From Nitrobacter winogradskyi (GTDB taxonomy: Bacteria > Pseudomonadota > Alphaproteobacteria > Rhizobiales > Xanthobacteraceae): DNA of 35,713 nt. The notes under the pieces are model-generated. The model was not told the origin of the DNA. It worked only from the letters and a program-made list of their open reading frames with translations, and did not search any database. The first letter of the stretch is position 1; each line of letters opens with the position of its first letter. Where the stretch lies: assembly GCF_006539545.1 (NCBI RefSeq), contig NZ_BJNF01000077.1:1-35713 (forward strand), in the 5' to 3' direction. The position numbers and the translations under genes were made by a program. Positions 4,735 to 31,401 of the stretch are shown here, in pieces.

Positions 4735-5298
4735 CTATTTCATCACCTCGCAAACCGTCGAATGATCAGGGCGGCGCAGGCTGCTGGCGGGCGTGGACAC
4801 CAGGCTCCACCACGCATCCAGCGATTCGTAATCGCAATGTAATTTGACGGTCATGCCGTCGGCGAATTTGATCAGGTCATCAAAATGATGGTGAGGCACC
4901 GCGATCACGACAGGAATGTCGTTGCCGAGCGCGCGCTCGATCAGGTGGGAGAAGCCTCTGCCCTTACGCTCCTGCCGGCCAAAACGGTTGACGATCAGGA
5001 TATCCGCGCCTGCGTCGAGCGTTGTCGCAATCCGTTCACCGGCGCTCGTCAACTGACCGACATCGAGCCGGCATCCTGCCGACTCCTGATCGAGGCTTTG
5101 ATGGAGCTGAAGATGCTCGCCCGTCGGCATCAGCATGGCTGACAGGCCGGCATCGATGCAGTGGCGGCCAAGCTGGACGATGCCCACGGCGCGGTAGCCG
5201 CTCGCGTTCAGACCGGAAGCGAACTCATAAAGGACATTGTCGGGATTTTCTCCCTCCATATAGACCAGAGCGGCAAGGTCGCATTGGGCGTCGAACAT
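4735..5298 (-). CDS. DUF2478 protein, molybdenum-associated
   Basis: A 187-residue soluble protein that I assign to the DUF2478 family. It opens LAALVYMEGENPDNVLYEFA and has LDAGADILIVNRFGRQERKG (about 97-117) followed by NDIPVVIAVPHHHFDDLIKFADG. The family resembles a nucleotide-binding fold without a clear Walker A, and its members often sit near molybdate transport genes. The biochemical role is unknown. Context agrees: a ModE-like regulator lies upstream on the same strand, and a good ModE box (5398-5425) sits about 100 bases before this ATG. It is therefore probably a member of the Mo regulon. The family call rests on recall and pattern, not on a search. Confidence 0.75.
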   Translation of the reverse strand: MFDAQCDLAALVYMEGENPDNVLYEFASGLNASGYRAVGIVQLGRHCIDAGLSAMLMPTGEHLQLHQSLDQESAGCRLDVGQLTSAGERIATTLDAGADILIVNRFGRQERKGRGFSHLIERALGNDIPVVIAVPHHHFDDLIKFADGMTVKLHCDYESLDAWWSLVSTPASSLRRPDHSTVCEVMK

Positions 5299-5397
5299 GG
5301 TCCGCCTCCTTCAAGTTCGCGTCGCGTTCGTCATGATCCGCCGGCGGTGTGGAGATCCGAAACCACGCATTCGGCTTCTCCTCCCGTCATCGGCCTT

Positions 5398-5425
5398 ATC
5401 GATATATCCGATTATATATCACGAA
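5398..5425. promoter_or_regulatory. ModE (Mo-box) operator upstream of DUF2478 gene
   Basis: Arms ATCGATATATC and TATATCACGAA are separated by the six bases CGATTA. Against the E. coli ModE consensus (ATCGCTATATA, N6, TATATAACGAT) each arm matches at 9 of 11 positions. The site lies between the ModE-like gene and the DUF2478 gene, 100 bases upstream of the DUF2478 start on the minus strand, a plausible promoter position. ModE normally represses when molybdate is plentiful. Confidence 0.75.
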
Positions 5426-5543
5426 GGAAAAGGCGAGACCAGAGCGCAACTCGGGGGAGGGTGGCCTCACAGGATGGACGCGAGCGTCCGGGTTCCGGTT
5501 CGGCATGACGCCGCCGCGGCCACCCGATAACAAGCGCTCCGGA

Positions 5544-5948
5544 TCAACGAGACTTGACGTTCCTGTCTCGTTCCGTGCTTTTTTTCGGGTGCCGGATATC
5601 GTTTCGCAGCGCCTCCAGCTCCTTGTGGACCGCGCTGGCGGCGTCGCGTTCGATCTTGCGATAGCGGGCAACCAGCGACACCCCGAACAGGGTGAGGACC
5701 GCGCCGCCTCCGTTCTTGCCGCCGGTCTGTCGCGCGACCGCCGCCTGCCGGCAGATGCGATTTATTTCATCGACGAGATCCCACGCGCGCTTGTAGGACA
5801 TGTCCATGGCGCGTCCGGCGGCCGAAATCGAGCCGCAAGTCTGTATGCTCTCGAGCAGTTCAATTTTACCCGGTCCGATGCGGCCCTTGGGATCGAGATC
5901 GATCCGTAAACTCAGTGAGGGAAGTGATCTGTTGGACGAAGCCTGCAT
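5544..5948 (-). CDS. modE: ModE-like winged-helix regulator, DNA-binding domain only
   Basis: A 134-residue protein matching the N-terminal LysR-type winged helix of ModE. The recognition region reads GPGKIELLESIQTCGSISAA followed by GRAMDMSYKRAWDLVDEIN, the hallmark of this family. A wing (GGAVLTLFGVSLVARYRKIE) follows, then a short basic helical tail. E. coli ModE is about 260 residues and has two TOBE/Mop molybdate-binding domains; none is present here, so this is a single-domain regulator. How it senses molybdate is not visible: it may depend on a separate Mop protein. It lies upstream of the DUF2478 gene with a Mo-box between them, and is the obvious candidate to read the three boxes in this window. 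Confidence 0.85.
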   Translation of the reverse strand: MQASSNRSLPSLSLRIDLDPKGRIGPGKIELLESIQTCGSISAAGRAMDMSYKRAWDLVDEINRICRQAAVARQTGGKNGGGAVLTLFGVSLVARYRKIERDAASAVHKELEALRNDIRHPKKSTERDRNVKSR

Positions 5949-6015
5949 TTCATGCTCGGTGGTTCACGATCCAAGCCAACTGGAAACCGAACTATACATC
6001 ATTCGACGGTGAACG

Positions 6016-8547
6016 TCAGCTTTCTATTGATCTTATCCGCCGCCGTGATGCTCCGGAACGCTCGCCGTCGGCAAGGTCGCGCACCAGGGTTTCGATGCGA
6101 TCGAGGTTGTGCACGTGCAGGTCCCGCTTCGCGTTCGGAAGCTCGATTCCTTCCTTACGGAAGCGCTTGAGGATCTCGAGCCTCACCTCGTTGGCGGCGC
6201 CTGCGTCGATGCCGATGTGCGCCACATGAAAGAAGGCCGAGAATTCCAGCGCGTCGGGGCCGAAATTATTGAGAATTGCGAACGGTTCAGGTGACTTCAG
6301 GGCGCGGGGGTGGCGCGAGACGATCTCGAGCAGGATCGCAAGAACCTTGTCCGGGTCCGCGTTGCTGGAGGTGCTGACCGCCACGGACAGACGGGCCGAA
6401 TAGCTGCCATGCATCCAGTTGACCACCTGACCGCTGATCAGTTCCGCGTTGGGCACGATCACCGAGACGTTATCATAGGTGGCGATCTCGGTGGCGCGGA
6501 CGTTGATGCGCTTCACGACGCCCATGCGGGTGCCGACCTCGATGCGATCTCCGACCTTGATCGGTCGCTCTACAAGCAGAATCAGGCCGGAGACGAAGTT
6601 GTTGATGATGGATTGCAGTCCGAAGCCGATGCCGACCGACAGCGCGCCGGCCACGATAGCGACGTTCTGCAAGTTAAGTCCGACATACGACAGCGCGATC
6701 AGGGTCGCGAGAATGACCCCCGCATAGCCCGCGCCGGTGCCGATCGAACTGCGAACGCCGACATCGAGATTTGTTTCAGGAAGGAAACGCTCCTCCAGCC
6801 ATCGCTTGAGCGCGCGTGTGGCGAAGACACCGATCGTGAGCACCGCAAGCGCGCCGAGAATCTGGGACGGCGAAATGGTGATGTTGCCGATTTGAAAACT
6901 GAAGAACGCCGACGACATCGACGTGACGACGTCGTCGGAACGAATTCCCCACGTCGTGAGGATAAAAAAGGCTGTAAGTCCGATCAGAGACAGCTGGATG
7001 AGGCCGCCGAGCACCGCGGCGATCTGGCGGACCGCGCCGCTTCCCAGGCCAGCGGTTTGCCGCAGAAAGCGGCCGATCGCGCCATTGAAAGCGAACGTCG
7101 TGTTGACGAGAACCGCCGAGAACCGGCTCAGGAGGATGAAACTCATGAGCGCGACGACCATTACGACCATTTCGATCGTGATGAACCGGCCTAATGCGAC
7201 ATACCCTGCGAGGGGTCCGATAATGGCGGCCATGGCCATCATCCAGCCGATCGGAATCAACAGTCGCCACGCGGATCTTTGCGCGGAGGAGGGGGCCGCC
7301 GATTCCTCCTCGGCTTCTGTGGCGGCCGCAACGCGCAGCGCGCCCATGAAGAGAAGCGCTTTCGTGGTCGCAAGTATCGCCTGGCTTGCGATCGTAAGCT
7401 CGATTGGCGATGCGATCGCCAGACTGAGCGCGTCGAGAACGATGCCGACCGCGGTGACCATGGCGAGCAGCACCGAGTAGGAGATCAGTCCGTCGGCCGC
7501 GGCATTGTCCAGTTCGATCAGGCGCCATGATGGGCGGCCAGGTGCGAGGACCGCGCTGGTCAGCCGGATAAAAAAGAACCCGAAGGTGATACCCAGAAAC
7601 AGGGCCCGAACGATCGGCGTCACGTCGCCGGGGAGAACCTCGAGCGTCAGGAGCGCCTGGTACAGCACAAGCAGCGCGACGGCCGTAAGCGAGGTATCCG
7701 TGAACACGATCGCGGCCGCGGAACCCGTCTTTCGCAGCGCGCTGGGATTGGCGATCTCGGGATCGCGCGTCGTCCATCGTGACCACCAGCGCCTGCCCGG
7801 TGACAGGAAGAATCCGAGCACGACGATGGCGGCGATAACAAAGCCGGACGCGGCGCGAAGCGGCTGTGACGACAGGACGCGCCCCCATTTGGAGAGCAGA
7901 TCGACCAGGCGACCGGCGGCAATCGGAGCTGCGTTCGCGGCCGTGAGCCAGAACGTGGGATTGACGAGGCTTGCGGAGCGCTGCAGCACGGATTCGTTAA
8001 ATACCGCGCGCCGCCGATCGGAGATCGCGTCGATCGTTTGCTGGGCTCGCACGTTGATGAGCTTGGCCTGTTGAATGACGCCTTGCCTTGCGGCGATCTC
8101 GGCCAACAGTTTGGCCCGTTCGAGCTTCACCTCGTCAGGCTGCGGAGCGGTGGCTTCAGGACTTGGCGCGAGTTCGGCGGCGCGCGCGCTTGCCGCCTCC
8201 AGGCGAGGCGTAATTCTCGATATCAGCTCGCGTGCTTCGCGCTGCGCCGTCGCGGATCGATCCCGAAGATCGTTCAACATGGTGTCGTGAATGACTCTGG
8301 CGCGCAGCGTCGCCTCGACCTGATCGAGCGTCTGCTTCCACTCGTCGAGTTTCGACTGGGCTCGCGGAAACTCCGGCGCCGGGACGGACGGCAGATCCTC
8401 TGCGGGAGCAGGAGGCGCGGCGGGTGCGGCGGCCGGGCTTGCCGGCTTGCCGTTCCCGGCTGCCGGCGCCGTCGCGGCCGCCGCGGCATTCAGAGGCACC
8501 CAGGATAAGAAGATGATGAAGAAAATGGCCGCGCGAATTGTCTTCAT
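6016..8547 (-). CDS. MscS-family mechanosensitive channel with DUF3772 periplasmic domain
   Basis: An 843-residue inner-membrane protein. A signal peptide (MKTIRAAIFFIIFLSWVP, ending near AAAA) is followed by a Pro/Ala-rich stretch and a periplasmic helical domain (about 55-200; DUF3772 type). Many membrane helices follow (about 220-590). The C-terminal MscS pore and beta domain starts near residue 610, with the family stretch GIGFGLQSIINNFVSGLILL, then RPIKVGDRIEVGTRMGVV and SVIVPNAELISGQVVNW. Such channels release solutes on hypo-osmotic shock. Its stop is 67 bases upstream of the modE-like start on the same strand, so co-transcription is possible but nothing suggests shared function. Confidence 0.9.
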   Translation of the reverse strand: MKTIRAAIFFIIFLSWVPLNAAAAATAPAAGNGKPASPAAAPAAPPAPAEDLPSVPAPEFPRAQSKLDEWKQTLDQVEATLRARVIHDTMLNDLRDRSATAQREARELISRITPRLEAASARAAELAPSPEATAPQPDEVKLERAKLLAEIAARQGVIQQAKLINVRAQQTIDAISDRRRAVFNESVLQRSASLVNPTFWLTAANAAPIAAGRLVDLLSKWGRVLSSQPLRAASGFVIAAIVVLGFFLSPGRRWWSRWTTRDPEIANPSALRKTGSAAAIVFTDTSLTAVALLVLYQALLTLEVLPGDVTPIVRALFLGITFGFFFIRLTSAVLAPGRPSWRLIELDNAAADGLISYSVLLAMVTAVGIVLDALSLAIASPIELTIASQAILATTKALLFMGALRVAAATEAEEESAAPSSAQRSAWRLLIPIGWMMAMAAIIGPLAGYVALGRFITIEMVVMVVALMSFILLSRFSAVLVNTTFAFNGAIGRFLRQTAGLGSGAVRQIAAVLGGLIQLSLIGLTAFFILTTWGIRSDDVVTSMSSAFFSFQIGNITISPSQILGALAVLTIGVFATRALKRWLEERFLPETNLDVGVRSSIGTGAGYAGVILATLIALSYVGLNLQNVAIVAGALSVGIGFGLQSIINNFVSGLILLVERPIKVGDRIEVGTRMGVVKRINVRATEIATYDNVSVIVPNAELISGQVVNWMHGSYSARLSVAVSTSSNADPDKVLAILLEIVSRHPRALKSPEPFAILNNFGPDALEFSAFFHVAHIGIDAGAANEVRLEILKRFRKEGIELPNAKRDLHVHNLDRIETLVRDLADGERSGASRRRIRSIES

Positions 8548-9023
8548 GCTCTTTGCCTATTGAAACCGCAGAGGATAACGATGCAGCATTCCAGAACGGA
8601 ATGGCGGAGCCGGTCGTAACGGCTTTCCGGTGCTGTCCGACCCGTGTAATGCGCGTGAAAGCGCACAAGTTCATTTTGCGGTACAATAGGTAGAAATCCG
8701 CCTATTGTGTGTAGGGTGGTTCAGTCGCCGCTGACTTTAGCGAAATGATCCGGTATCCCGCCTCTCGTCAATGCTTGACGGGAATGCTTTGACGAGGCCG
8801 GCTGGTGGGAAGGTCCAGGGTGAACGCCCGGCCGGCCTGCAGGCCAATCTGTCGCGGTCGGTCGGGTGTCGCCGTCGGTCCGTGCCGGCGCCTTCGGTCT
8901 ATACAATTGATAAAATTAACATATTTCCTTGAGTGACTCACCTCACGGTTTCTCCCGGCTCAATGGATCAGGGTGGCGCATCGACACCGGCCGCAAGTTA
9001 CGGCCAGCCCGAGGAGCCTCGCG
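8548..9023. other. 476-base intergenic region with operator-like palindrome
   Basis: No convincing gene is seen between the divergent MscS-type gene and the small Cys-rich protein gene. It contains a perfect inverted repeat, ACAATAGG (8683-8690) and CCTATTGT (8701-8708), spaced by 10 bases, as expected for a dimeric regulator site. A GC-rich inverted repeat (GGCCGGC around 8796 and GGCCGGCC around 8830) follows, and then an AT-rich stretch near 8900-8935 that could hold the promoter of the downstream gene. Confidence 0.5.
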
Positions 9024-9299
9024 ATGACCGTCGTTCACGCTGAAACTGCCCGTCAAGTCTCCGCGATCCTGGCGGTCGCGACCATTCTGACCGCGCTGGC
9101 CAGCCCGAGCTTTGCTTTCACGGCTGAGGCACAACGACAGTGCACGGGCGACGCATTCCGCCTGTGCAGCTCCGAGATCCCGGATATCGGCCGGATCACC
9201 GCCTGCATGGTCAAGAACCGCCCCAGCCTTAGCTCGGGCTGCCGTGTTGAACTTGACAAAGGACTATCCGCGCGAACTCACCGGGTCGCCGCGCAGTAA
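9024..9299 (+). CDS. Small secreted protein with four conserved-type cysteines
   Basis: The start is placed at the ATG giving MTVVHAETARQVSAILAVAT, which leads directly into a signal peptide ending near SFAFTAEA. A longer reading from 8973 only adds an unconvincing N-terminus. The mature part is about 60 residues: QRQCTGDAFRLCSSEIPD, then ITACMVKNRPSLSSGCRVEL. The spacing C-x7-C, ACM...SGC resembles the short Cys-rich repeat of secreted or periplasmic proteins that recurs in Bradyrhizobiaceae. Function is unknown. The product is probably periplasmic with two disulfides. It stands alone. Confidence 0.72.
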   Translation: MTVVHAETARQVSAILAVATILTALASPSFAFTAEAQRQCTGDAFRLCSSEIPDIGRITACMVKNRPSLSSGCRVELDKGLSARTHRVAAQ

Positions 9300-9425
9300 A
9301 CCGCTGGATTTGTCAGGTGTCATCTGTTGTTGCTCCCCCTTTTGCTCCCTTATAGTTAGGGAGGTGCGCTTACGACGTCCGCTGCATGGGCGCGGTCGGC
9401 CAGCCGAACTTCAGGGGATTGTCAA

Positions 9426-10655
9426 ATGGCAGGTAGCGATCCTGGCACGCCCGCAACTCCGGCAGGGTCTGGCGCGGGCGACCATGCCTACGCGGCCGTG
9501 ATGGCGCGGGCGCGGGCGCTGGTGCCGGAGCTGCGTGATAGGGCTGCCAGAAGCGAGGAGTTGCGGCGTCTGCCGCCGGAGACCGAGAACGAATTTCATG
9601 AGGCCGGATTATTCAAGATCCTGCAGCCGAGGCGGGTCGGCGGCCTTGAATTCGACTACGTTGCGCTGGTTGACCTTGCCGAAGCGATTGCCGTCGCCGA
9701 CGCATCCGCGGCCTGGACGCTGGCCAACCTTGCGAGCCATCACTGGATGCTCGGCATGTTCGATCACCGGGCTCAGGATGCCGTCTGGGCGAAAGATCCC
9801 AATGCGTTGATCGCCTCATCCTTCGTGTTTCCTTCCGGTCGCGCCACCAAGGTCGAGGGTGGGTATCGCTTGCAGGGACGCTGGCCGTTTTCCTCGGGAG
9901 TGGACTGCTGCACCTGGAACATGCTCGCCGGGCACGTTTCATCCGATGACGAAGCTGATGGCATCGAGTACAGGATTTTCCTGGTCCCTCGCGAGCGCTA
10001 TCGGATCATCGATATGTGGAACGCCGCGGGCCTGAAAGGAACGGGCTCGAACGACGTCGCCGCCGACGATGTCTTCGTCGAGGAGGCGATGACCCTGTCG
10101 GTAGCGGAGATCGCGGGAGGCCTGTCACCCGGCAGCGCCGTCAATCCGAATCCGCTTTATGCGCTGCCGGTCTTCGCGCTGTTTCCGTTCGTGCTGTCGG
10201 GGGTGGCGCTCGGCAACGCCCAGGGGTGTCTCAATGACTACATCGAGATCGCGCGGCACCGCGCAACCACTTTCAACCGCGCCAAGCTCGGCGATCTTCA
10301 GTCCACGCAGATCAAGATCGCCGAAGCATCCGCGAAAATCGACGCCGCTCGCCTGGTCATGCGCTCGATCTGCATCAGGGCGATGTCCGATGCGCGGCGC
10401 GGGATTGTCCCCGACATGGCGGTGAAAACCGGATGGCGGCGCGATGGCGCTTATGCCGTGACCTTGTGCACGGAAGCGGTGTCGTTGCTGTTTACGTCAA
10501 GCGGGGCGCGCGGATTATTCGCCGCCGCGCCGCTGCAGCGCCAGTTCCGCGATGCGGTCGCGATCAATTCCCATATCGCATTCAGCTTCGATGCTGCGGG
10601 TACGGATTACGGCCGGGTCGCCCTCGGGCTGCCGTCGCAGAATCTGACGTTGTGA
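9426..10655 (+). CDS. Flavin-dependent monooxygenase oxygenase subunit (acyl-CoA dehydrogenase fold)
   Basis: A 409-residue protein with the acyl-CoA dehydrogenase fold of the HsaA/HpaH-type group D flavin monooxygenases. An N-terminal helical domain (ALVPELRDRAARSEELRRLP, ETENEFHEAGLFKILQPRRV) leads to a middle beta domain (RLQGRWPFSSGVDCCTWNML, GTGSNDVAADDVFV), then the type-2 C-terminal helical domain with ARGLFAAAPLQRQFRDAVAI and NSHIAFSFDAAGTDYG. It uses reduced flavin and oxygen to hydroxylate a substrate, often aromatic, or to act on a sulfur compound. The substrate cannot be read here. A flavin reductase starts 9 bases after the stop, the standard two-component arrangement. An AGGGGA ribosome site supports this ATG. 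Confidence 0.88.
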   Translation: MAGSDPGTPATPAGSGAGDHAYAAVMARARALVPELRDRAARSEELRRLPPETENEFHEAGLFKILQPRRVGGLEFDYVALVDLAEAIAVADASAAWTLANLASHHWMLGMFDHRAQDAVWAKDPNALIASSFVFPSGRATKVEGGYRLQGRWPFSSGVDCCTWNMLAGHVSSDDEADGIEYRIFLVPRERYRIIDMWNAAGLKGTGSNDVAADDVFVEEAMTLSVAEIAGGLSPGSAVNPNPLYALPVFALFPFVLSGVALGNAQGCLNDYIEIARHRATTFNRAKLGDLQSTQIKIAEASAKIDAARLVMRSICIRAMSDARRGIVPDMAVKTGWRRDGAYAVTLCTEAVSLLFTSSGARGLFAAAPLQRQFRDAVAINSHIAFSFDAAGTDYGRVALGLPSQNLTL

Positions 10656-10663
10656 GGCGTCTG

Positions 10664-11206
10664 ATGACTGACGGTTCTGAACTTCCCGATCCGCCGGATC
10701 CGGCCCGTGAACTGGCGAGCGGGGAGTCGGCTCTCGATCCGCGCGACTTCCGCAATGCGCTCGGAACCTATGCGACGGGAGTCACCATCATCACGGCTGT
10801 CGACGAGGAAGGAACGCCGCACGGGTTAACGTGCAATTCGTTCGCGTCGGTCTCGCTGAATCCGCCGTTGGTGCTGTGGAGCCTCGTGATCTATTCGCGA
10901 AACATGAGCGTCTTTCAGAACGCCAGCCATTTCGCCGTCAATGTGCTCGGGGCTTCACAGCAAGAGTTCGCAACTAAATTCGCGCAGCCGTCGAGCCGGA
11001 AGTTCGAGGGGATCGACTGGAAAGCCGGTCTCGGCGGTGCGCCGCTTCTGGCGGGCAGCGTTGCGAACTTTGAATGCCGAACCGTCGATCGTTATTACGG
11101 CGGAGATCACGTCATCTTCCTCGGCGCCGTGGAAGCCTATAGCTATAACCGGGACGAGGCGCTGTTGTTTGCCCGCGGCAAGTATGGCCGCTTCGTTGGC
11201 GAATGA
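10664..11206 (+). CDS. Flavin reductase, partner of the upstream monooxygenase
   Basis: A 180-residue flavin reductase-like (FMN-binding split barrel) protein. The core begins with DPRDFRNALGTYATGVTIIT, followed by GTPHGLTCNSFASVSLNPPL and VLWSLVIYSRNMSVFQNASH. It ends with GGDHVIFLGAVEAYSYNRDE and LLFARGKYGRFVG, all typical of HpaC/HsaB-type reductases that supply reduced flavin to an oxygenase. The ATG at 10664 is preferred because it lies 9 bases after the oxygenase stop; the frame is open further upstream, but that part overlaps the oxygenase gene. Confidence 0.9.
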   Translation: MTDGSELPDPPDPARELASGESALDPRDFRNALGTYATGVTIITAVDEEGTPHGLTCNSFASVSLNPPLVLWSLVIYSRNMSVFQNASHFAVNVLGASQQEFATKFAQPSSRKFEGIDWKAGLGGAPLLAGSVANFECRTVDRYYGGDHVIFLGAVEAYSYNRDEALLFARGKYGRFVGE

Positions 11207-11354
11207 CGGCCCGCTGGGCCAATACGGCAGCAGACTGAATTCCGGCGATGTCCCACGAGCCGGCACGTCGAATATCCTTGCCGCGGCATTTCCGACCTGA
11301 CTTTCCTCCACCTCCGGGGCGGGTTCGTCGCCGCCCGTATCCTGCCGCGATTGA

Positions 11355-12590
11355 ATGTCTGGGAGCACGATGGCCGATCCGATTCTGATTGTTGGAATAC
11401 CCCTCGATTTCATCTTCTTTGCGTTCATCCTGCTCGGCATTGCGCTATTCCACCGGCATACGCTTCCGATCGCGTTGACCGGTCTCGCTGTGATCATCGG
11501 TTATAAGACAGGTTTCACGGGCTTCAGGTCCGGCGCGGGGTTGAGCGGCTTTGCCCATCACATGGCGCATGAATGGGTCATGCTGGCCAACCTGTTCCTG
11601 CTGCTGATGGGATTTGCGCTGCTGTCGCGGCACTTCGAGGAGAGCCGGATTCCCGACGCGATGCCAGCCCTGTTGCCCGATGACTGGAAAGGCGGCGTCG
11701 TCCTTCTCGTCATCATTTTCGTTCTGTCGAGCTTCCTCGACAACATCGCCGGCGCGCTGATCGGAGGAACGGTGGCGCGCCATGTCTTTCGAGGGAAAGT
11801 GCACATCGGTTATCTGGCTGCGATCGTCGCGGCCTCCAATGCGGGTGGCGCCGGAAGCGTCATCGGCGATACGACGACGACAATGATGTGGATCGACGGC
11901 GTCAGTCCGCTCAGTGTGCTCAGGGCGTATGTCGCGGCCATCGTGGCGTTCGCGATCTTCGCGGTTCCGGCCGCGATGCTGCAGCATCGCTTTTCGCCGA
12001 TCGTGAAGGATTCGCGGCGCGGCGTGTGTGTGGACGGCGCGCGAGTCTTCGTCGTTGCGGTCATCCTCATCGCGGCACTGGCGGCGAATGTGACCGCCAA
12101 TCTCAAATTCCCGGCGTTGCTGGATACGCTTCCCGTGCTCGGGCTCGCTGTCTGGGCGGCGATTTTGCTGACGGCCTTCTTGCGAAGGCCGGACTGGAAG
12201 GTGATGCCCGAAACGTTCAAGGGCACGGTCTTTCTTCTGGCGCTCGTGACCGCCGCCTCCATGATGCCAGTCGAGACACTGCCGGCGGCATCGTGGCAGA
12301 CGACGCTTGGCCTTGGCTTTGTTTCCTCGGTTTTCGATAACATCCCGCTCACCGAGCTGGCGCTCAAGCAGGGCGGCTATGACTGGGGATTTCTCGCCTA
12401 TGCCGTGGGCTTCGGCGGTTCGATGATCTGGTTCGGCTCCTCCGCGGGCGTGGCGCTTTCGAGCATGTATCCCGAGGCGAAATCCGTGGGGCTGTGGGTC
12501 AGGAACGGCTGGACCATCGCGGTCGCTTACGTTGTCGGCTTTTTCGTGATGCTGGCCATCCTCGGCTGGCATCCCGACGCGCCCCATTGA
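11355..12590 (+). CDS. Ion transporter superfamily permease (citrate transporter-like)
   Basis: A 411-residue polytopic inner-membrane protein with about 10-11 hydrophobic helices. The fold features of the ion-transporter superfamily are visible: two re-entrant-type segments, VLSSFLDNIAGALIGGTVAR in the first half and FVSSVFDNIPLTELALKQGG in the second, plus NAGGAGSVIGDTTTTMMWID. The paired 'S-x-DN' motifs resemble those in NhaD/ArsB/CitM-type carriers. The substrate is not inferable: either sodium/proton exchange or a di- or tricarboxylate is possible. An internal ATG (MADPIL) five codons in is an equally likely start. It lies 148 bases after the flavin reductase and may be independent. Confidence 0.82.
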   Translation: MSGSTMADPILIVGIPLDFIFFAFILLGIALFHRHTLPIALTGLAVIIGYKTGFTGFRSGAGLSGFAHHMAHEWVMLANLFLLLMGFALLSRHFEESRIPDAMPALLPDDWKGGVVLLVIIFVLSSFLDNIAGALIGGTVARHVFRGKVHIGYLAAIVAASNAGGAGSVIGDTTTTMMWIDGVSPLSVLRAYVAAIVAFAIFAVPAAMLQHRFSPIVKDSRRGVCVDGARVFVVAVILIAALAANVTANLKFPALLDTLPVLGLAVWAAILLTAFLRRPDWKVMPETFKGTVFLLALVTAASMMPVETLPAASWQTTLGLGFVSSVFDNIPLTELALKQGGYDWGFLAYAVGFGGSMIWFGSSAGVALSSMYPEAKSVGLWVRNGWTIAVAYVVGFFVMLAILGWHPDAPH

Positions 12591-12770
12591 AGGCGAGGGC
12601 GCATCAGCCCGACAGCGTTGCGTGGCGCATGCGGCGCGTTTCGCCAGTTCAGGTTAAGCCGGTTTTCCGGTCGGGAAACACCCTAAAATTTCCGCAATGA
12701 TGCTCAAGGTAACGATTTTGCAAGTCATTGAAAGTTACCGATTAGTTCAACCTGTACTGGAGTTATTAAC

Positions 12771-13775
12771 GTGAGCGACCATTCGTCTGATCGGACTGCC
12801 GGTGAGCGCGATGACAAACTCCCTGAGACGGGGGACAGGCTGTCGCCCGGCGACAACAAGCCTCGGATCGCCCCCGCGACCGACGCTGAGACCGACGCGG
12901 AAGCTCCGGCGATCAAGGCGCTTCGGGGCGAGGCTGATGCGGAAGGGCAAGCTCGTGCGGTGGAGGTCTCTCCGGTCGGGCCCGAGGTTGAAGTCGAACA
13001 TTCCAGGTCCGGCCTGCCGCGAGAACTCGGCAAGGCCATGGTCGTGACGCCGTTTCATGATGGGGGCTGGGATCGTGCGGCCAGTGATCACGGCCCGGCG
13101 GCAGCCGACGGCGCGCGAACCTCGAGCCGGTTCGGCAAACGGCGTCTCGCCGCCGTTGCGGCGATGGCGGCATTGGCCGCGATCACCGGTGCGATCGGCG
13201 GTTCGCTTGCCACCTCCGGCTTTCGCCAAGGCATCGCGGATGAACAGTCGTCAGCGGCTGCGGACCGCACTCAAGCCCTCGAAACCACGATCAAGCAGCT
13301 CGAATCCGAAATCGCCTCGTTGAAGACAGGCGTCGATCGCTCGGCCAAGAATGAAGCGGGCCGGTTCGCCAAGGTCAACGATCGTCTGGACAAGATCGAG
13401 AAGGCGCAGACTGACTCGGCGGCAAGGTTGACGAAGCTCCAGGAGACGCTGGACAAGCCGCATTCGGCTGCGGCGCCGGCAGCACCGACCGCGCCAGCGG
13501 CGGCGACCGCTGCGGCGAACGTGACAGGCTCGATTCCAGTTGCCGAGCCGGTGCCGCTGCCGTCGCCAAAGCCCGGCATCGCGCGCCTGCCTACGGTCCA
13601 GGGTTGGATCTTGCACGACGTCATGGACGGCGTTGCCTTGATTGAAGGCCGGAGCGGCGTTTACGAGGTTCGCTCCGGTGATCCAGTCCCGGGGCTCGGC
13701 CGCGTCGATGCGATCCGCAAACAGGACGGTCGCTGGGTCGTCGTGACCAGCCGAGGCCTGATCGGAGCACGCTGA
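12771..13775 (+). CDS. Membrane-anchored coiled-coil protein, function unknown
   Basis: A 334-residue protein with a GTG start. A charged, probably disordered cytoplasmic region (1-120) is followed by one membrane helix (about 126-150: RLAAVAAMAALAAITGAIGG) and a predicted coiled coil (about 165-230: LETTIKQLESEIASLKTGVD, DRLDKIEKAQTDSAARLTKL). An Ala/Pro linker leads to a small C-terminal domain (GWILHDVMDGVALIEGRSGV, then YEVRSGDPVPGLGRVDAI). Proteins of this layout are common and uncharacterised in Bradyrhizobiaceae. The C-terminal domain is probably periplasmic. No operon partner is evident. Confidence 0.8.
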   Translation: MSDHSSDRTAGERDDKLPETGDRLSPGDNKPRIAPATDAETDAEAPAIKALRGEADAEGQARAVEVSPVGPEVEVEHSRSGLPRELGKAMVVTPFHDGGWDRAASDHGPAAADGARTSSRFGKRRLAAVAAMAALAAITGAIGGSLATSGFRQGIADEQSSAAADRTQALETTIKQLESEIASLKTGVDRSAKNEAGRFAKVNDRLDKIEKAQTDSAARLTKLQETLDKPHSAAAPAAPTAPAAATAAANVTGSIPVAEPVPLPSPKPGIARLPTVQGWILHDVMDGVALIEGRSGVYEVRSGDPVPGLGRVDAIRKQDGRWVVVTSRGLIGAR

Positions 13776-14009
13776 CACGATCTCCGTGCCTTGCAACAGG
13801 ACGAGGCGTTGTGGGGAGACGTGGCATTTGTTTTAATGCCGTGTCTTTGAACTATTCTTGCAAGATGTAGCGCGGTCATAATCGCTTAGTTTTTGGCAAG
13901 GTGGCGGTCCGCTAAGCGCGCCGGGTGAAAAATCCGGGGCAGGAATTCATTGACTGCGCCGCTATATATGCGTCAATATGCCGCTACGTTACTTACCTTT
14001 ACTCCCGGT

Positions 14010-14037
14010 ATCGATATATTCTAAAAAATATATCGTA
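14010..14037. promoter_or_regulatory. ModE (Mo-box) operator at the TonB receptor promoter
   Basis: Arms ATCGATATATT and AATATATCGTA flank the six bases CTAAAA, the 11-6-11 layout of a ModE box and a near-perfect palindrome. The left arm matches the E. coli consensus at 9 of 11 positions, the right at 7. The box ends 16 bases before the receptor ATG at 14054, so it must overlap the core promoter or start of transcription. Bound ModE would block expression. Confidence 0.7.
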
Positions 14038-14053
14038 TTTTCCGGGGGTGATT

Positions 14054-16219
14054 ATGATATTGTCGATGAATTGCATGAGCAGGAGCGCGCTCCTGTCGTC
14101 GGTCGCAATTATTGCGATGACGGTCGGCGCGGGCGCGCAAGATCGTGAAGAGGATCGTAATCATCAGGGTCGTGACGGAGTTTATCAACTCGGCGAGATC
14201 TACGTTTCCGGTGGAGGGCGCACCGGAAGCGGCAGCGGAGGCGGCGTCGGCGGCTCGACGGTGACGCGCGAGCAGACGTGGACCTTCGACAGGCAAACGC
14301 TTGACCAGGCGGTGAACCTCGTGCCCGGTGTTAACGGCACGCTATCGGCCAATGGTCAGCGGAACGAGACCGATATTTTCGTGCGCGGCTTCGGCCGCTG
14401 GCAAGTCCCGTTGATGATCGATGGTGTGCGCGTCTATCTTCCGGCCGACAACCGGCTCGATTTCAGCCGTTTCCTCACCGGCGACATCGCCGAAATCCAG
14501 ATTCAGAAGGGTTATTCTTCGGTGCTCGACGGGCCGGGCGGGATGGGCGGGGCCATCAACCTGGTGTCGATCAAACCGGTCAAGCCGTTCGAGTCTGAAC
14601 TCAACGTCAGCTCGATGTTCGACAATCGCGGAGCATTCCAGGGCTGGAACAGCTACGCGCGGATCGGCTCGCGCCAGGAGAAGTTCTACGTTCAGGGCAG
14701 CGTCAACCAGCTCGACCAGGATTTCTGGTCGCTGTCGCGCGGCTATTCGCCGTACCCGGCGCAAGGCCCTTACGCCGGCTCGCTCGAGGACGGCGGACGG
14801 CGCAACGGTTCAGATACCCACGACTGGCGAATTAACCTTAAGGCGGGTTACACGCCGAACGAAACCGACGAATACAGCATCAACTATATCAAGCAGTCCG
14901 GCGCCAAGGGCGCGCCCCTGAACGTCTACAACAATCCGCCGTCGAGCCAGAACAGCTTCTGGCTGTGGCCGAAATGGGATGTCGAGAATCTGTCCTTCCT
15001 GTCGCATACGCAGCTCGGCGACGCCTCCTATGTCAGGACCAAGCTTTTCCATAATAGGTTCGACAACGTGCTCTCGGCGTATGATGACATCACCTATTCG
15101 TCGCAATCGAACAATGGACGCTTCAACAGCTTCTATGCAGACAGCGCGCGTGGCGGCTCGGTCGAGGCCGGCACCGAATTGATCCCGATGAATACCCTGA
15201 AGGGGACGTTCCATTATCGGCAGGATTTCCATGCCGAGTGGAATCACAACCGGCCGACCCATCCGACGCTGGCTGATCTGGAGCCGAGGCAGAATCAGGC
15301 GCAGACGACATGGTCGGTCGCGGCGGAGGACACTTTCCACGTCACCCCGAACTTCGATCTGGTGGGAGGCGTCAGCTACGACAGATACCAGATCAACAGG
15401 GCCGAGGAGTGGGACAGCGCCGGCCGGTTCATCTATGAAAACCCGAAGGGCGGCGCCGAAGCCCTCAACTGGCAGACGGCAGCGATCTGGCGTTACAACG
15501 AAACCGGGCAGGTTCATTTCAGCGTATCCGACCGCGCGCGTTTTCCAACCATCTTCGAGCTTTACAGCCAGCGCTTCGGCAACGCGATTCCAAACCCCAA
15601 CCTCGGTCCCGAGCGCGCCACCAATTACGAGCTTGGCTGGAAGGGTCAGATTGTTTCCAACCTGAAGGGAACGGCGGCGATCTTCTACAGTGACGTACGG
15701 GATCTGATCCAGGCGGTTCGCGTCAGTCCAACTCAGTCGCAGACGCAGAATATCAACCAGGGACACTTCTACGGATTTGAGGCATCGCTCGAAGCGCAAC
15801 TCTCCGCGCAGTTCATGCTCGGCGGCAACTACACCTTCATCGAGCGGAACGTCAGCGACGTATCCATCCCCGGCTTCAGGCCCGTCGGCGTGCCGACCCA
15901 GAAGGCGTTCATCTATGCGACATGGCGGCCGATCGCGCCGCTCGCCATCACGCCGAGTCTGGAGGTCACGAGCGACCGCTGGAGCGATGTCTTTGTCGGC
16001 ACTCAGGCTCAGAACGCGCCGATCCGCGCCGCGTTTCCTGATCTCTATATCCGAACCGGAGCCTATACGCTCGCCAACGTCAACGTGAACTACAGGTTCA
16101 CCGAGAATTTCGACGTGGCGGGCGGCGTGAGAAACCTGCTCGACCAGAACTTCGAGCTTGCGTGGGGGCTGCCGCAGCCGGGACGCACCTTCTACCTGAA
16201 GGCGCGGGCCACATTCTAG
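14054..16219 (+). CDS. TonB-dependent outer-membrane receptor, probably Mo-regulated
   Basis: A TonB-dependent receptor of about 721 residues. The reading frame opens further upstream (GTG at 13925), but that would place the Mo-box inside the gene. The ATG at 14054 gives a clean signal peptide (MILSMNCMSRSALLSSVAII to AGAQ) and is preferred. The plug domain shows GEIYVSGGGR, LVPGVNGTLSANGQRNETDI, FVRGFGRWQVPLMIDGVRVY and KGYSSVLDGPGGMGGAINLV. The 22-strand barrel follows and ends FYLKARATF with the terminal Phe required for outer-membrane insertion. Such receptors import chelated metals, cobalamin or similar ligands using TonB energy. The ligand is not known; the ModE box suggests a molybdenum compound or molybdophore. 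The downstream secreted protein and di-haem peroxidase may be partners. Confidence 0.92.
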   Translation: MILSMNCMSRSALLSSVAIIAMTVGAGAQDREEDRNHQGRDGVYQLGEIYVSGGGRTGSGSGGGVGGSTVTREQTWTFDRQTLDQAVNLVPGVNGTLSANGQRNETDIFVRGFGRWQVPLMIDGVRVYLPADNRLDFSRFLTGDIAEIQIQKGYSSVLDGPGGMGGAINLVSIKPVKPFESELNVSSMFDNRGAFQGWNSYARIGSRQEKFYVQGSVNQLDQDFWSLSRGYSPYPAQGPYAGSLEDGGRRNGSDTHDWRINLKAGYTPNETDEYSINYIKQSGAKGAPLNVYNNPPSSQNSFWLWPKWDVENLSFLSHTQLGDASYVRTKLFHNRFDNVLSAYDDITYSSQSNNGRFNSFYADSARGGSVEAGTELIPMNTLKGTFHYRQDFHAEWNHNRPTHPTLADLEPRQNQAQTTWSVAAEDTFHVTPNFDLVGGVSYDRYQINRAEEWDSAGRFIYENPKGGAEALNWQTAAIWRYNETGQVHFSVSDRARFPTIFELYSQRFGNAIPNPNLGPERATNYELGWKGQIVSNLKGTAAIFYSDVRDLIQAVRVSPTQSQTQNINQGHFYGFEASLEAQLSAQFMLGGNYTFIERNVSDVSIPGFRPVGVPTQKAFIYATWRPIAPLAITPSLEVTSDRWSDVFVGTQAQNAPIRAAFPDLYIRTGAYTLANVNVNYRFTENFDVAGGVRNLLDQNFELAWGLPQPGRTFYLKARATF

Positions 16220-16345
16220 AGCATTTTCGCTTCTGATTGAATCAGAAGCGAGCTCTAGATTGTCGTTTGACGCGCTTCTTCATGCGAACAGGTCATCCAC
16301 CCTCGGGTCAAGTCCGACGGCATGCTTCGCTCGAAAACGCTATAG
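16216..16345 (-). repeat. Dispersed intergenic repeat, copy 2 (reverse, full length)
   Basis: The reverse-orientation, longer copy of the element at 2708. It starts with a large stem: CTAGAGC (16216-16222) pairs with GCTCTAG (16252-16258), enclosing TCGCTTCTGATT paired with AATCAGAAGCGA. Reading leftward it contains GCGTTTTCGAGCGAAGC and GAAGCGCGTCAAA. The TonB receptor stop codon lies within its first bases, so the element abuts the gene and its hairpin may act as terminator or mRNA end. Confidence 0.78.
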
Positions 16346-16470
16346 CTTAGTGCGGTGGTCGCGGCGAGGAGATGCACGTCAGCCCTCCGGCGTGCATCTC
16401 CCAACGGCGCGATGCTGATCGTTTCCGTTTGAACGTATGCCCACTCATGTGCGGTTGCTGCGCGGACAGA

Positions 16471-16498
16471 TACGTTATATTCATATAAATATAGATTT
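16471..16498. promoter_or_regulatory. Candidate weaker ModE box upstream of the secreted protein/peroxidase pair
   Basis: Arms TACGTTATATT and AATATAGATTT flank CATATA. The inner halves are a perfect palindrome and the left arm keeps CGTTATAT, but the right arm lacks the CG, giving 7 and 6 matches of 11 to the E. coli consensus. It lies 24 bases before the ATG at 16523, close to the spacing seen at the TonB receptor, and is separated from that gene by the dispersed repeat. This is the least certain of the three boxes. Confidence 0.5.
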
Positions 16499-16522
16499 GG
16501 TGATGGGGACGGGGAGGGAATC

Positions 16523-17059
16523 ATGCGCAGGAAGATGTTATGGGGTCCGGTGCTGGGTGCGCTGGCCGTCGTCATTGTCGCAGTAGGGTCGACCGAAGCG
16601 CAGGAGGCCGCCCAGCCTGCCTGTGCGGCGCCGGTCGCGCCGACAGGTGAACTGGCGCCCTGGACTACGCCGTTCCCGTTGCAGGCGGCCGGCAGCGAGG
16701 AGGGCATTTCAAGCGCGAGCCTGCCGGTCGGCCGGGCCGCGCGCCTGACGTTGTTGCAGACGCCGGAGGTGCGCTATCCGCTGCGTCCCGAGAAGCCGGG
16801 CGGCTCGGTCAGCCATGGCGGTCTTGTACGGATCGATGTGCGCGAAGCCGGCACCTACCGGGTGGCGCTCGACTCAGCCGCCTGGATCGACCTCGTGCGT
16901 GATCAGCAGGCGTTGAGATCGACCGCGCACGGGCATGGACCGCACTGCACCGGGGTTCGCAAGATGGTGGATTACTCTCTCACTCCAGGTCCTTACATCC
17001 TGCAGATATCGGCCAATGGCCAGCCGCAGATGACGGTCCTGCTCGCGCGCTTGCCCTGA
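16523..17059 (+). CDS. Secreted protein of unknown function, partner of MauG-like peroxidase
   Basis: A 178-residue protein with a signal peptide (MLWGPVLGALAVVIVAVGST, cut near EAQEAA). The mature part contains LARLTLLQTP-like beta strands and ends with AGTYRVALDSAAWIDLVRDQ, PHCTGVRKMVDYSLTPGPYI and LQISANGQPQMTVLLARLP. The C-terminal half looks like a small beta-sandwich of pre-peptidase type, but I do not recognise the family. There are two cysteines in the mature part. The ATG follows a GGGGAGGGA ribosome site, and the next gene (di-haem peroxidase) starts 4 bases after the stop, so the two are co-translated and probably act together in the periplasm. Confidence 0.8.
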   Translation: MRRKMLWGPVLGALAVVIVAVGSTEAQEAAQPACAAPVAPTGELAPWTTPFPLQAAGSEEGISSASLPVGRAARLTLLQTPEVRYPLRPEKPGGSVSHGGLVRIDVREAGTYRVALDSAAWIDLVRDQQALRSTAHGHGPHCTGVRKMVDYSLTPGPYILQISANGQPQMTVLLARLP

Positions 17060-17063
17060 TCCC

Positions 17064-18068
17064 GTGCAGATCCGGCGTTTCTCGCGTCCGTTGCTGTCAG
17101 CCGGGCTGCTGCTGATCATATCGTTGTCAGCCGCGCTGCCGATGGAAGAAGCCTCGACATGGCGCTGGACGCTGCCGGCCGGCGTTTCGGCGCCACCGAT
17201 CCCGGCCGATAATCCCATGACCGCTGCCAAGGTCGAGCTCGGGAGGCGTCTGTTCTACGACGCCGATCTGTCGGTTGACGGCACCATGTCCTGCGCCACC
17301 TGCCACGTGCAGAAGCACGCTTTCGCCGATAGCACCCGCACCCGCCCCGGCGTGACCGATGAACCGGGGCGACGCAATGTTCCCGGGCTCGCCAATGTCG
17401 CATGGTTCACGCCGTTGAACTTCGCGGACCCGGCAGCCGCGACGCTTGAGATGCAGGCGGCGACCCCGGTATTCGGCACTCATCCGGTCGAGATGGGCAT
17501 GGCGGGGCGTGAAGCCGAGATCGGCAGGCGGTTCGGACGCGACAGCTGCTACCCGACGATGTTCGCGCGCGCCTTTCCCGACAATGGCGGTCGCATCGAC
17601 TTTCCCAATGTGGCGCGCGCCCTGGCGAGCTTCGAACGCACGCTGATCTCCTACGGCAGCGCCTGGGACCGGCAGCAGCTCGGTCCCGAAGCGCAAGCTG
17701 GTTCCGCGCTGTTCGCCCGCGATTGCGCGAGCTGTCATTCAGGAGCGAACTTCACGGATTTGACCATGCACCGTCTCGGCCCGGTCGATCCCGCGCTGGC
17801 CGATCAGGGGCTGTTCGAGAAGACGGGGATCGACACCGATCGCGGCAAGTTTCGTACGCCCTCGCTGCGCAACGTCGCGCTGACCGGCCCCTGGTGGCAC
17901 GATGGATCGGCGCGGACGCTTGATGAGGCTATCGTCAGGCACCGGCTGACGCACGACGCGGGCGAGGTGGCGCAGCTGATCGCTTTCCTCAAGGCTCTGT
18001 CCGATACCGAATTTACCGGGCGCAAGTCGCTCGCCATGCCTGAAGAGGCCTGCGGCAAGCGGCTGTGA
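17064..18068 (+). CDS. MauG/cytochrome c peroxidase-like di-haem protein
   Basis: A 334-residue periplasmic di-haem cytochrome of the CcpA/MauG family. The start is GTG, and the signal peptide is FSRPLLSAGLLLIISLSAAL. The first haem site is MSCATCHVQKHAF (about residues 75-80) and the second is RDCASCHSGANFTDL (about 225-230). Between them lie family stretches TPVFGTHPVEMGMAGRE and ALASFERTLISYGSAWDR, and after them FRTPSLRNVALTGPWWHDGS. Members reduce peroxide or carry out protein-residue oxidations (MauG, MbnH). It overlaps functionally with the secreted protein immediately upstream (4-base gap). Placement behind a TonB receptor resembles metallophore systems in which a MauG-like enzyme modifies a small periplasmic partner; that link is inference. 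Confidence 0.91.
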   Translation: MQIRRFSRPLLSAGLLLIISLSAALPMEEASTWRWTLPAGVSAPPIPADNPMTAAKVELGRRLFYDADLSVDGTMSCATCHVQKHAFADSTRTRPGVTDEPGRRNVPGLANVAWFTPLNFADPAAATLEMQAATPVFGTHPVEMGMAGREAEIGRRFGRDSCYPTMFARAFPDNGGRIDFPNVARALASFERTLISYGSAWDRQQLGPEAQAGSALFARDCASCHSGANFTDLTMHRLGPVDPALADQGLFEKTGIDTDRGKFRTPSLRNVALTGPWWHDGSARTLDEAIVRHRLTHDAGEVAQLIAFLKALSDTEFTGRKSLAMPEEACGKRL

Positions 18069-28577: not shown

Positions 28578-28755
28578 TGGTGTATCCCTAAGCGGTTCGC
28601 AGCCTCGGTTTCATCCGACACACGTTAATTACCCAACGTTGCATCGAGTGTCGACAGGCAACCCGGAGTGGTCAGAAGATGCTACGGTTCGCCGATCACG
28701 TACAGGCTGGACAAGATCGAAGCGGCCAAGGCACTCGTCATCGAGTAGCTTGATG

Positions 28756-29976: not shown

Positions 29977-30049
29977 CCAAGTCGGATCAAGGTCTTGGAA
30001 ACAGGGCCTTTTTCCTTGCTGCGGGGAGGGGCGATCAACGTGAATTCCC

Positions 30050-30355
30050 TCAGAACAGAACGAACTGATTCGGATTTTCCGGGCTCCGTTCGCGTTTCCT
30101 TCCGCGATAGGTCCGGATGTTTTCGTACTGCTTATCGGTGATCGCCATAATGTGGATCTTTCCGGACGCCGGCATGAACTGCTCGATCTTGCGTTCGTAA
30201 GCCGCAGCCTGTTCCTTGCCCGCGCAGAATCGCAAATATACAGAAAACTGGCTCATCTCGAAGCCCAGATCGAGAAGCTTCAGTCGAAAGCCGCTGGCCG
30301 CTTTTCGTTCTTTCTTGGTGCCGACCGGCAGGTCGAACAGGACGACAAGCCACAT
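30050..30355 (-). CDS. cas2: CRISPR-associated Cas2
   Basis: A 101-residue Cas2, the dimeric core of the Cas1-Cas2 spacer integrase. The start is placed at the ATG giving MWLVVLFDLPVGTKKERKAA, since the beta-strand with the conserved Asp (LFDLPV) must be near the N-terminus; a longer frame to 30511 would overlap cas1. Further features are GFEMSQFSVYLRFCAGKEQA and KIHIMAITDKQYENIRTYRG, and the end NPNQFVLF. It is the last gene of the cas9-cas1-cas2 operon, 59 bases after cas1, with the array directly downstream. Confidence 0.95.
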   Translation of the reverse strand: MWLVVLFDLPVGTKKERKAASGFRLKLLDLGFEMSQFSVYLRFCAGKEQAAAYERKIEQFMPASGKIHIMAITDKQYENIRTYRGRKRERSPENPNQFVLF

Positions 30356-30414
30356 GATCCGATATCCCGAAAGTGCCGGCGGTGATCTCGATCGGGTCGG
30401 GGCGCCCGCCATGT

Positions 30415-31314: not shown

Positions 31315-31401
31315 GTGGTGAACCTCCTGCGGGCGAGCCTTCGCGTCGCAGGATTATGAGGCGGTGCTACGAATGCTCGCAACACGTGTGTTAAGACAAG
31401 G

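What the first reader, a model, noticed from the sequence alone, without database searches (positions are those of the whole stretch)
4735..18068. Three Mo-box palindromes define a putative molybdenum regulon including a TonB receptor
Three 28-bp sites with the ModE 11-6-11 layout lie upstream of a DUF2478 gene (5398), a TonB-dependent receptor (14010) and a secreted-protein/di-haem peroxidase pair (16471), with a ModE-like gene at 5544-5948. The first two match the E. coli consensus arms at 9/11+9/11 and 9/11+7/11; the third is weaker. ModE is known for controlling modABC and molybdoenzymes. An outer-membrane receptor and a MauG-like enzyme under the same control would suggest active import of a molybdenum chelate under Mo starvation.
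Basis: partly seen in the sequence, partly recalled or inferred. Interest (0 to 1): 0.8.

Follow-up and report, generated by a model that had tools for sequence, protein, structure and literature searches.

The report
Molybdenum-switch sites control outer-membrane metal receptors
In a nitrite-oxidising bacterium, DNA sites of the kind used to sense molybdenum shortage sit in front of an outer-membrane import receptor, and the same pairing recurs in distant bacteria, which suggests an active molybdenum import route through the outer membrane.

Summary
The window is from a Nitrobacter species. In the ModE layout CGNTATAT-N8-ATATANCG the genome holds 9 sites with at most one mismatch (about 0.1 expected), 7 of 9 before metal-uptake or DUF2478 genes. 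The receptor's boxes are conserved: 11 of 14 orthologues have one with at most one mismatch, including a Syntrophorhabdales relative at 35% identity, and box arms are kept (0.96-0.97) while flanks drift (0.60). Among relatives, boxes track ModE-like genes; 19 of 35 sites read in ModE-bearing genomes lie by modABC, mop, modE, modD or DUF2478, 0 of 6 in genomes without ModE. In E. coli a receptor of the same clade closes an operon with modD and a FecCD transporter behind a perfect box; it is in 2,094 of 5,426 genomes and described as possible iron uptake. Best reading: a ModE-type, Mo-starvation regulon that includes outer-membrane import of a molybdenum species. Unproven: the ligand, the chelate, and how a ModE-like protein without a molybdate-binding domain senses Mo. 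The third box, before the di-haem pair, is weak and species-limited. No expression data were available.

The parts
5398..5425 (.). Mo box 1, promoter of the DUF2478 gene
   Evidence: 1 mismatch to CGNTATAT-N8-ATATANCG at 5400-5423; a box with up to 2 mismatches stands before DUF2478 also in G002, G004, G053, G047 and G033 and before the DUF2478 gene of G005, which lies away from its ModE-like gene
4735..5298 (-). DUF2478 protein (PF10649), modelled as a THEP1-like P-loop NTPase fold
   Evidence: Pfam E 1.1e-43; AlphaFold2 mean pLDDT 77; Foldseek best hit THEP1 1ye8, E 3.9e-5; co-occurs with ModE-like genes in 101 genomes, p 2e-5
5544..5948 (-). ModE-like winged-helix protein, DNA-binding domain only
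   Evidence: TIGR00637 E 1.7e-25; PDB 2ijl E 4e-32 and E. coli ModE 1b9m E 2e-15; no TOBE
13958..13985 (.). Mo box 2a, distal box of the TonB promoter (not in the finding)
   Evidence: 1 mismatch at 13960-13983; present with up to 2 mismatches in all 6 Nitrobacter orthologues and the Hyphomicrobiales MAG, 52-55 bp from the proximal box
14010..14037 (.). Mo box 2b, proximal box of the TonB promoter
   Evidence: 0 mismatches at 14012-14035, perfect inverted repeat, 18 bp before ATG 14054; arms 0.97 conserved against 0.60 for flanks in seven promoters
14054..16219 (+). TonB-dependent outer-membrane receptor (likely start ATG 14054)
   Evidence: Plug and beta-barrel domains; in an 18-member clade, support 100/100, with the E. 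coli modD-operon receptor
16471..16498 (.). Mo box 3, weak, before the secreted protein/di-haem pair
   Evidence: 2 mismatches at 16473-16496; kept in G004 (2 mismatches), decayed in Nb-311A, none with up to 3 mismatches in G003
16523..17059 (+). Small probably periplasmic protein, partner of the di-haem enzyme
   Evidence: no family; relatives beside TonB and di-haem genes in Sphingomonas, Methylorubrum and G090
17064..18068 (+). MbnH/MauG-like di-haem enzyme
   Evidence: TIGR04039 274 bits, under its cut-off of 363; PDB 6e1c E 2e-61; two CXXCH motifs

Best explanation
The boxes are binding sites of a ModE-type regulator (most likely the ModE-like protein encoded at 5544-5948 or its paralogue on contig C93). 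When molybdenum is plentiful the regulator holds these promoters off; when it is scarce they open and the cell makes outer-membrane TonB receptors, periplasmic carriers and FecCD transporters of the MolB family that import a molybdenum species, with DUF2478 as a cytoplasmic accessory. Shown: the sites, their excess, their conservation, their statistical link to ModE-like genes and their placement by molybdate genes in relatives. Inferred: that the ModE-like protein binds them, the direction of control, the molybdenum response, and that the receptor's cargo is molybdenum (as a chelate or other large complex, since free molybdate passes porins).
For: Excess: own genome 9 sites with at most 1 mismatch, 0.11 expected. 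Placement: 7 of those 9 precede TonB, FecCD, binding-protein or DUF2478 genes. Conservation: 11 of 14 TonB orthologues carry a box with at most 1 mismatch, that of G046 some 300 bp upstream; arms 0.96-0.97 conserved, flanks 0.60. Regulator link: 102 boxes in 53 genomes with a ModE-like gene, 7 in 48 without, Fisher p 5e-7; outside the genus 24 of 45 against 6 of 47 genomes, p 4e-5; reversed-pattern control 13 and 11. Molybdenum link: 19 of 35 sites read in ModE-bearing relatives lie by modABC, mop, modE, modD, a ModA-like gene or DUF2478, 0 of 6 in genomes without ModE. A TonB-ModA operon stands behind a box in five Nitrobacter genomes (loci fetched because of the boxes, so not a blind sample). 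Receptor beside full-length ModE in G046, G017, G051. FecCD permeases: best solved match MolB (HI1471) in 2 of 2 tested. E. coli operon with modD and a same-clade receptor behind a perfect box in 4 of 4 loci read. P. aeruginosa receptor beside moaA and nar genes with a 2-mismatch palindrome 14 bp before its start.
Against: No expression or binding data. modABC of Nitrobacter has only a 3-mismatch match, in 2 of 9 genomes. No TOBE domain in 4 of 9 Nitrobacter genomes, this one included, so the local regulator cannot sense Mo in the known way. 3 of 14 orthologues (G017, G051, G090) lack a good box although two of them lie beside full-length ModE; in the wider clade 4 of 18 have none and 2 only a 3-mismatch one. 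9 of the 35 sites read in ModE-bearing relatives have no evident link to Mo. Of this genome's 9 best sites, C41:47237 (rpsT-dnaA gap) and C90:30703 fit no uptake gene. Two Nitrobacter with a ModE-like gene, DUF2478 and boxes lack this receptor (G002, G008). The genomes are related and the tests do not correct for it.
Confidence: 0.75

Rival explanations
1. Iron rival: the receptors and FecCD transporters are ordinary siderophore systems, and the regulator has been recruited to iron or general metal control, so that the boxes no longer report molybdenum.
For: Receptor models and database labels say siderophore (labels); a non-ribosomal peptide synthetase cluster with a ModE paralogue and a 2-mismatch box lies on contig C93; Nitrobacter modABC lacks a conserved box; the local regulator lacks TOBE. 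The E. coli cluster is described as possible iron uptake (passages of PMC1890555 and PMC12928451).
Against: The same box serves modABC and mop in relatives, with modD nearby, and modD sits in the E. coli receptor operon. Two FecCD permeases tested match MolB before haem, hydroxamate or B12 permeases. No iron-type box was looked for, so this rival is not excluded directly.
Confidence: 0.15
2. Copper rival: the receptor, small periplasmic protein and MbnH-like di-haem enzyme form a copper-peptide system like the methanobactin importers, and the boxes coincide with copper need.
For: MbnH-type match; receptor, small protein and di-haem genes are together in four Nitrobacter, G090, Methylorubrum and Sphingomonas.
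Against: The score is below the MbnH family cut-off (274 of 363); the partner matches no family and its low-confidence model (pLDDT 65) has collagen-binding beta sandwiches as best, weak matches; the pair was not found beside 9 of the 14 receptor orthologues (for two of these, G001 and G006, only 1.5-2 kb downstream were held), of which 7 keep a box.
Confidence: 0.07
3. Chance or another AT-rich palindrome: the sites are not regulatory.
For: AT-rich dyads arise in intergenic DNA; boxes in the rpsT-dnaA gap and before fabA have no Mo link.
Against: Shuffles, Markov expectation, the reversed-pattern control, footprinting and the ModE co-occurrence all disagree.
Confidence: 0.03

Closest known systems
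ModE regulon (E. coli modABC, Mo enzymes; Mo-repressed alternative nitrogenase elsewhere)
   Same: Box layout and arms match the E. coli consensus ATCGNTATATA-N6-TATATANCGAT (passage of PMC545781); modABC, mop, modE beside boxes in relatives
   Different: Box-bearing genes include outer-membrane TonB receptors; the regulator here is the DNA-binding domain alone; Nitrobacter modABC is outside the set
MolBC-A molybdate/tungstate transporter of Haemophilus influenzae
   Same: Two box-linked FecCD permeases have MolB (2nq2) as best solved match, and the one binding protein tested also matches MolA (3psa); MolBC-A imports molybdate (abstract and passages of PMC4031551)
   Different: Here joined to TonB receptors; the binding protein's best match is 4ovk, not MolA
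prrA-modD-yc73-fepC cluster of E. coli
   Same: Same-clade receptor, a FecCD permease 45% identical to box-linked ones here, modD, perfect Mo box
   Different: Described in print as possibly iron uptake (PMC12928451 passage); no claim of molybdate control seen in the passages read
Methanobactin MbnT/MbnP/MbnH
   Same: TonB receptor with an MbnH-like di-haem enzyme
   Different: Partner is not MbnP by the family searches made; under a Mo box. Methanobactin genes were not searched for

Membership tests
ModE transcription factor | N-terminal winged-helix ModE domain | tested here: met
   TIGR00637 E 1.7e-25, though 89 bits is under the 98.5 cut-off; E. coli ModE 1b9m E 2e-15
ModE transcription factor | C-terminal TOBE (Mop) molybdate-binding domains | tested here: not met
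   134 aa, no TOBE; PF03459 0 matches in the genome. So it is filed as ModE-like, not ModE
ModE transcription factor | Binds the Mo box | not testable with these tools
   Only indirect: co-occurrence of gene and boxes
ModE regulon | E. coli-type Mo box at target promoters | tested here: met
ModE regulon | modABC among targets in the same genome | tested here: not met
   Nitrobacter modABC: 3-mismatch match in 2 of 9 genomes, none with up to 4 mismatches in 7; box at modABC in relatives G009, G026, G051, G055, G070, G077, G083
ModE regulon | Response to molybdate | not testable with these tools
   no expression data
TonB-dependent receptor | Plug and barrel domains | tested here: met
   PF07715 and PF00593 above cut-off
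MbnH | Score over the curated cut-off with an MbnP partner | tested here: not met
   274 of 362.85 bits; partner has no family
MolBCA-type importer | FecCD permease closest to MolB among solved structures | tested here: met
   2 of 2 tested: 2nq2 at 2e-57 and 8e-59, next best 1e-43 and 3e-44
MolBCA-type importer | Binding protein closest to MolA | tested here: not met
   one tested: best 4ovk 3e-35, MolA 3psa fourth at 4e-10
Molybdophore system | A chelator that binds Mo and is imported by the receptor | not testable with these tools
   NRPS cluster with box and ModE paralogue on C93; its penicillin-amidase gene in 1 of 296 family genomes at E 1e-120

The most novel reading that the evidence does not exclude
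A ModE-controlled outer-membrane pathway for molybdenum, from Alphaproteobacteria to E. coli: TonB receptors, MolB-type transporters and, in this Nitrobacter, an NRPS-made molybdophore, all opened by Mo starvation together with Mo-free replacement enzymes in relatives (NAD formate dehydrogenase, aldehyde dehydrogenases, MsrA), and sensed in Nitrobacter without any TOBE domain, perhaps through the THEP1-like DUF2478 protein.
Probability: 0.25. Interest if true: 0.93.

Novelty: new variant of a known kind. Interest (0 to 1): 0.8.

Why it matters
Molybdate is taught as entering Gram-negative cells by porins and then ModABC. A conserved, ModE-type-controlled TonB route would mean that bacteria pay to pull molybdenum across the outer membrane, would give candidate receptors for the import of molybdenum chelates, and would move a gene cluster found in 39% (2,094 of 5,426) of complete E. 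coli genomes from the iron list to the molybdenum list. In Nitrobacter it bears on nitrification, since nitrite oxidoreductase is a molybdoenzyme (recalled). It is directly testable with a promoter fusion.

Tried and rejected
modABC of Nitrobacter as calibration: the promoter has only a 3-mismatch match in G000 and G004 and none with up to 4 mismatches in the other seven; Rfam found nothing there (in one search the G007 stretch was cut at the wrong place, and reads the right one). So calibration was taken from relatives. NRPS cluster as a general feature: rejected, its penicillin amidase is in 1 of 296 family genomes. P16523 as MbnP: no support. Studholme and Pau 2003 is not held and was seen only as a reference; what I know of it is recalled. 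Ten literature searches listed no title or abstract that ties a TonB receptor to ModE; I read passages of ten papers, the word 'mode' makes several searches blunt, listings were capped at 12-30 rows, and subscription journals are missing. A transcriptome paper on N. winogradskyi (PMC10781756, 12 of 26 passages shown) gave no molybdate data for these genes in what I saw. Counts: 41 of the 55 non-genus sites with at most 1 mismatch were read (35 of 48 in ModE-bearing genomes, 6 of 7 in others); the rest were not listed. In G009, G026 and G028 the box falls inside the called start of the gene; I take that start as called too early. The Markov expectation rests on 282 kb that is box-rich and partly overlapping. 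TonB receptors with boxes in this genome (5 of 41 barrel matches) were matched by eye; the 41 include pieces of one broken receptor on C81.
Full report
What it is. The window is contig C77 of a 3.96 Mb draft genome. The TonB receptor is 88% identical to one of Nitrobacter sp. Nb-311A and the flanking genes that were compared are in the same order there, so the window is from a Nitrobacter species. G004 (3,402,093 bases) is probably N. winogradskyi Nb-255; that name is recalled.

The observation. The core of the E. coli Mo box, CGNTATAT-N8-ATATANCG, is met at 14012 without mismatch, at 5400 and 13960 with one and at 16473 with two; four matches against 0.45 expected, reached by 0 of 100 shuffles. 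The site at 13960 is new. The receptor's likely start is ATG 14054, so both its boxes lie upstream, 52 bp apart, about five helical turns.

Genome-wide. One search finds 1, 8 and 13 places with 0, 1 and 2 mismatches; a first-order Markov model expects 0.002, 0.11 and 2.9. With 3 mismatches allowed the total of 85 is not far above the reversed-pattern control (55) and the model (49), so such weak matches mean little. The nine best sites stand before: the window's receptor (two), DUF2478 (window), a divergent pair of a TonB receptor and an unnamed gene-FecCD row on C81, an unnamed gene-FecCD row on C88, a TonB-ModA-DUF2478 row on C88, a divergent TonB receptor/binding-protein pair on C114, the rpsT-dnaA gap on C41, and no clear gene on C90. 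Two-mismatch sites include the NRPS cluster with a ModE paralogue on C93, an ShlB-ExbB-ExbD-TonB row on C95, and a luciferase-like monooxygenase on C114, whose relatives in G001 and G005 have a box with one mismatch; others, such as those on C10 and C41:37378, fit no such gene. The genome has 41 TonB-barrel matches; five have a box of at most two mismatches just upstream (by eye), so this is a subset of the receptors.

Conservation. Fourteen orthologues of the receptor were collected (Nb-311A counted once). Ten carry a box with at most one mismatch near the start: six Nitrobacter, a Hyphomicrobiales MAG (68% identity), two Afipia MAGs (62-63%) and a Syntrophorhabdales MAG (35%, two boxes); G046 has one some 300 bp upstream of its called start. 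G017 and G051 have none and G090 only 3-mismatch matches. In seven aligned promoters the arms of the two boxes are 0.96 and 0.97 conserved, the proximal spacer 0.64 and the rest 0.60. The spacer of the distal box is also conserved (0.86), so that site may overlap another element.

Link to ModE. In 101 relatives, 53 have a ModE-like gene. They hold 102 boxes with at most one mismatch; the 48 without hold 7; the reversed pattern gives 13 and 11. Outside the genus 24 of 45 against 6 of 47 genomes have a box (p 4e-5). G007, the one Nitrobacter without a ModE-like match at E 1e-8, has no box (89% complete). Relatedness of genomes is not corrected for.

Link to molybdenum. I read 41 of the 55 sites outside the genus. 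Of 35 in ModE-bearing genomes, 19 lie by modABC, mop, modE, modD, a ModA-like gene or DUF2478 (G009, G012, G026, G028, G043, G050, G051, G055, G070, G077, G083, G091); 6 lie by enzymes that can replace molybdoenzymes: NAD formate dehydrogenase (G028: 712 bits against a cut-off of 329; G050: 80% identical to it, behind a LysR gene), aldehyde dehydrogenases (G028 twice, G012) and MsrA (G022); one lies by nifH (G050); 9 have no evident link, two of these beside CoxE-like VWA genes. That the replacements serve to spare molybdenum is inference. Of 6 sites in genomes without ModE, none lies by a gene of the reference set. In Nitrobacter a TonB-ModA operon has a box in G000, G001, G002, G005 and G006; these loci were fetched because of their boxes, so this is a description and not a blind test. 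In G046, G017 and G051 the receptor's neighbour is a full-length ModE; two of the three were scanned and have two TOBE domains, and two TOBE matches also lie at the third. In Polymorphobacter a 129-aa ModE-like gene (45% to the window's) stands beside TonB and a ModA-like gene, with only a 3-mismatch box between.

E. coli. A search of plasmid records gave 23 with a relative of the receptor, of which I read 7. In E. coli the receptor (30% identity) closes a row of binding protein, FecCD permease, ATPase, methyltransferase and ModD between treA and ymgE, with a box without mismatch 24 bp before the first ATG in 4 of 4 loci read, Nissle 1917 and an O157:H7 strain included. At least 80% of it is present in 2,094 of 5,426 complete genomes; a K-12-derived strain in the list, XL1-Blue, matches only at ymgE. 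[quoted passage not shown]). Of the other six records read, Methylorubrum has a 1-mismatch box, P. aeruginosa a 2-mismatch one, Azospirillum a 2-mismatch one 2.8 kb upstream at the head of the gene row, Paracoccus aminovorans only 3-mismatch ones, and Bartonella sp. and Sphingomonas none by the receptor. A tree places the E. coli and P. aeruginosa receptors with the window's in an 18-member clade (100/100): 12 of 18 have a box of at most two mismatches at the gene or the head of its row, 2 only a three-mismatch one, 4 none (labels set by me; the program warns of long branches elsewhere in the tree).

Mechanism. ModE with molybdate represses modABC and, in some bacteria, Mo-free nitrogenase (established knowledge). 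The simplest reading carries this to the receptors. Free molybdate passes porins, so a TonB receptor makes sense for a larger species: a catecholate or other complex. The two FecCD permeases tested match MolB best, which fits molybdenum at the inner membrane; the one binding protein tested does not match MolA best. How Nitrobacter senses Mo is open: ModE is cut to its DNA-binding domain, ModC of this genome is 221 aa, and no TOBE is found in 4 of 9 Nitrobacter genomes, this one included, while the boxes remain. DUF2478 is the best local candidate partner: beside or one gene from the ModE-like gene in seven genomes read (G000, G002, G004, G008, G033, G047, G053), itself behind a box in six of them, co-occurring with ModE (34/19/10/38, p 2e-5), and modelled as a THEP1-like NTPase. 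That is a lead, not a result.

The third site. It is kept in G004, decayed in Nb-311A and not found in G003, where the secreted-protein/di-haem genes follow the receptor too. The pair recurs beside receptors of this clade in G090, Methylorubrum and Sphingomonas, so it belongs with the receptor; its own box is a local feature. Its role, perhaps oxidative handling of the cargo, is unknown.

Verdict. Observation confirmed and enlarged; the regulon reading is well supported, the cargo and sensing are inferred.

Noticed in passing
L237, L244, L245, L246 (E. coli): The treA-ymgE gene row with modD and a TonB receptor, described as possible iron uptake, has a perfect Mo box 24 bp before its first gene in 4 of 4 loci read; present in 2,094 of 5,426 complete E. 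coli genomes.
   Followed up: partly
L115 6645-18373, L208 1996-4407, L210 3492-4258, L212, L214: Mo boxes beside enzymes that could replace molybdoenzymes: NAD formate dehydrogenase, aldehyde dehydrogenases, MsrA; looks like a molybdenum-sparing response.
   Followed up: partly
L025 and L130 (contig C93): NRPS cluster (about 7,000 aa of NRPS, TauD-like, penicillin amidase, PPTase, thioesterase, ABC ATPase, a relative of a periplasmic binding protein) with a ModE paralogue and a 2-mismatch box; the amidase gene is in 1 of 296 family genomes.
   Followed up: partly
G000, G002, G004, G005: No TOBE domain found in these four of nine Nitrobacter genomes, though modA and ModE-like genes remain; ModC of G000 is 221 aa.
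   Followed up: partly
L026 7238-7261; L136 7786-7809: A one-mismatch box upstream of dnaA (in G000 between rpsT and dnaA) in two Nitrobacter genomes, with no molybdenum link.
   Followed up: no
L028 6912-6935; L137 9892-9915: A box upstream of fabA in two Nitrobacter genomes (2 and 1 mismatches).
   Followed up: no
L098 9830-13640; L110 4428-6399: DUF364/DUF4213 putative heavy-metal chelation proteins close to the receptor in a Syntrophorhabdales MAG (with ExbB and ExbD) and in G046.
   Followed up: no
window 28750-34878: cas2, cas1 and cas9 (Pfam matches) with a CRISPR-like array of 66-nt period at about 28750-29976; 29019-29186 and 29480-29647 are identical.
   Followed up: partly
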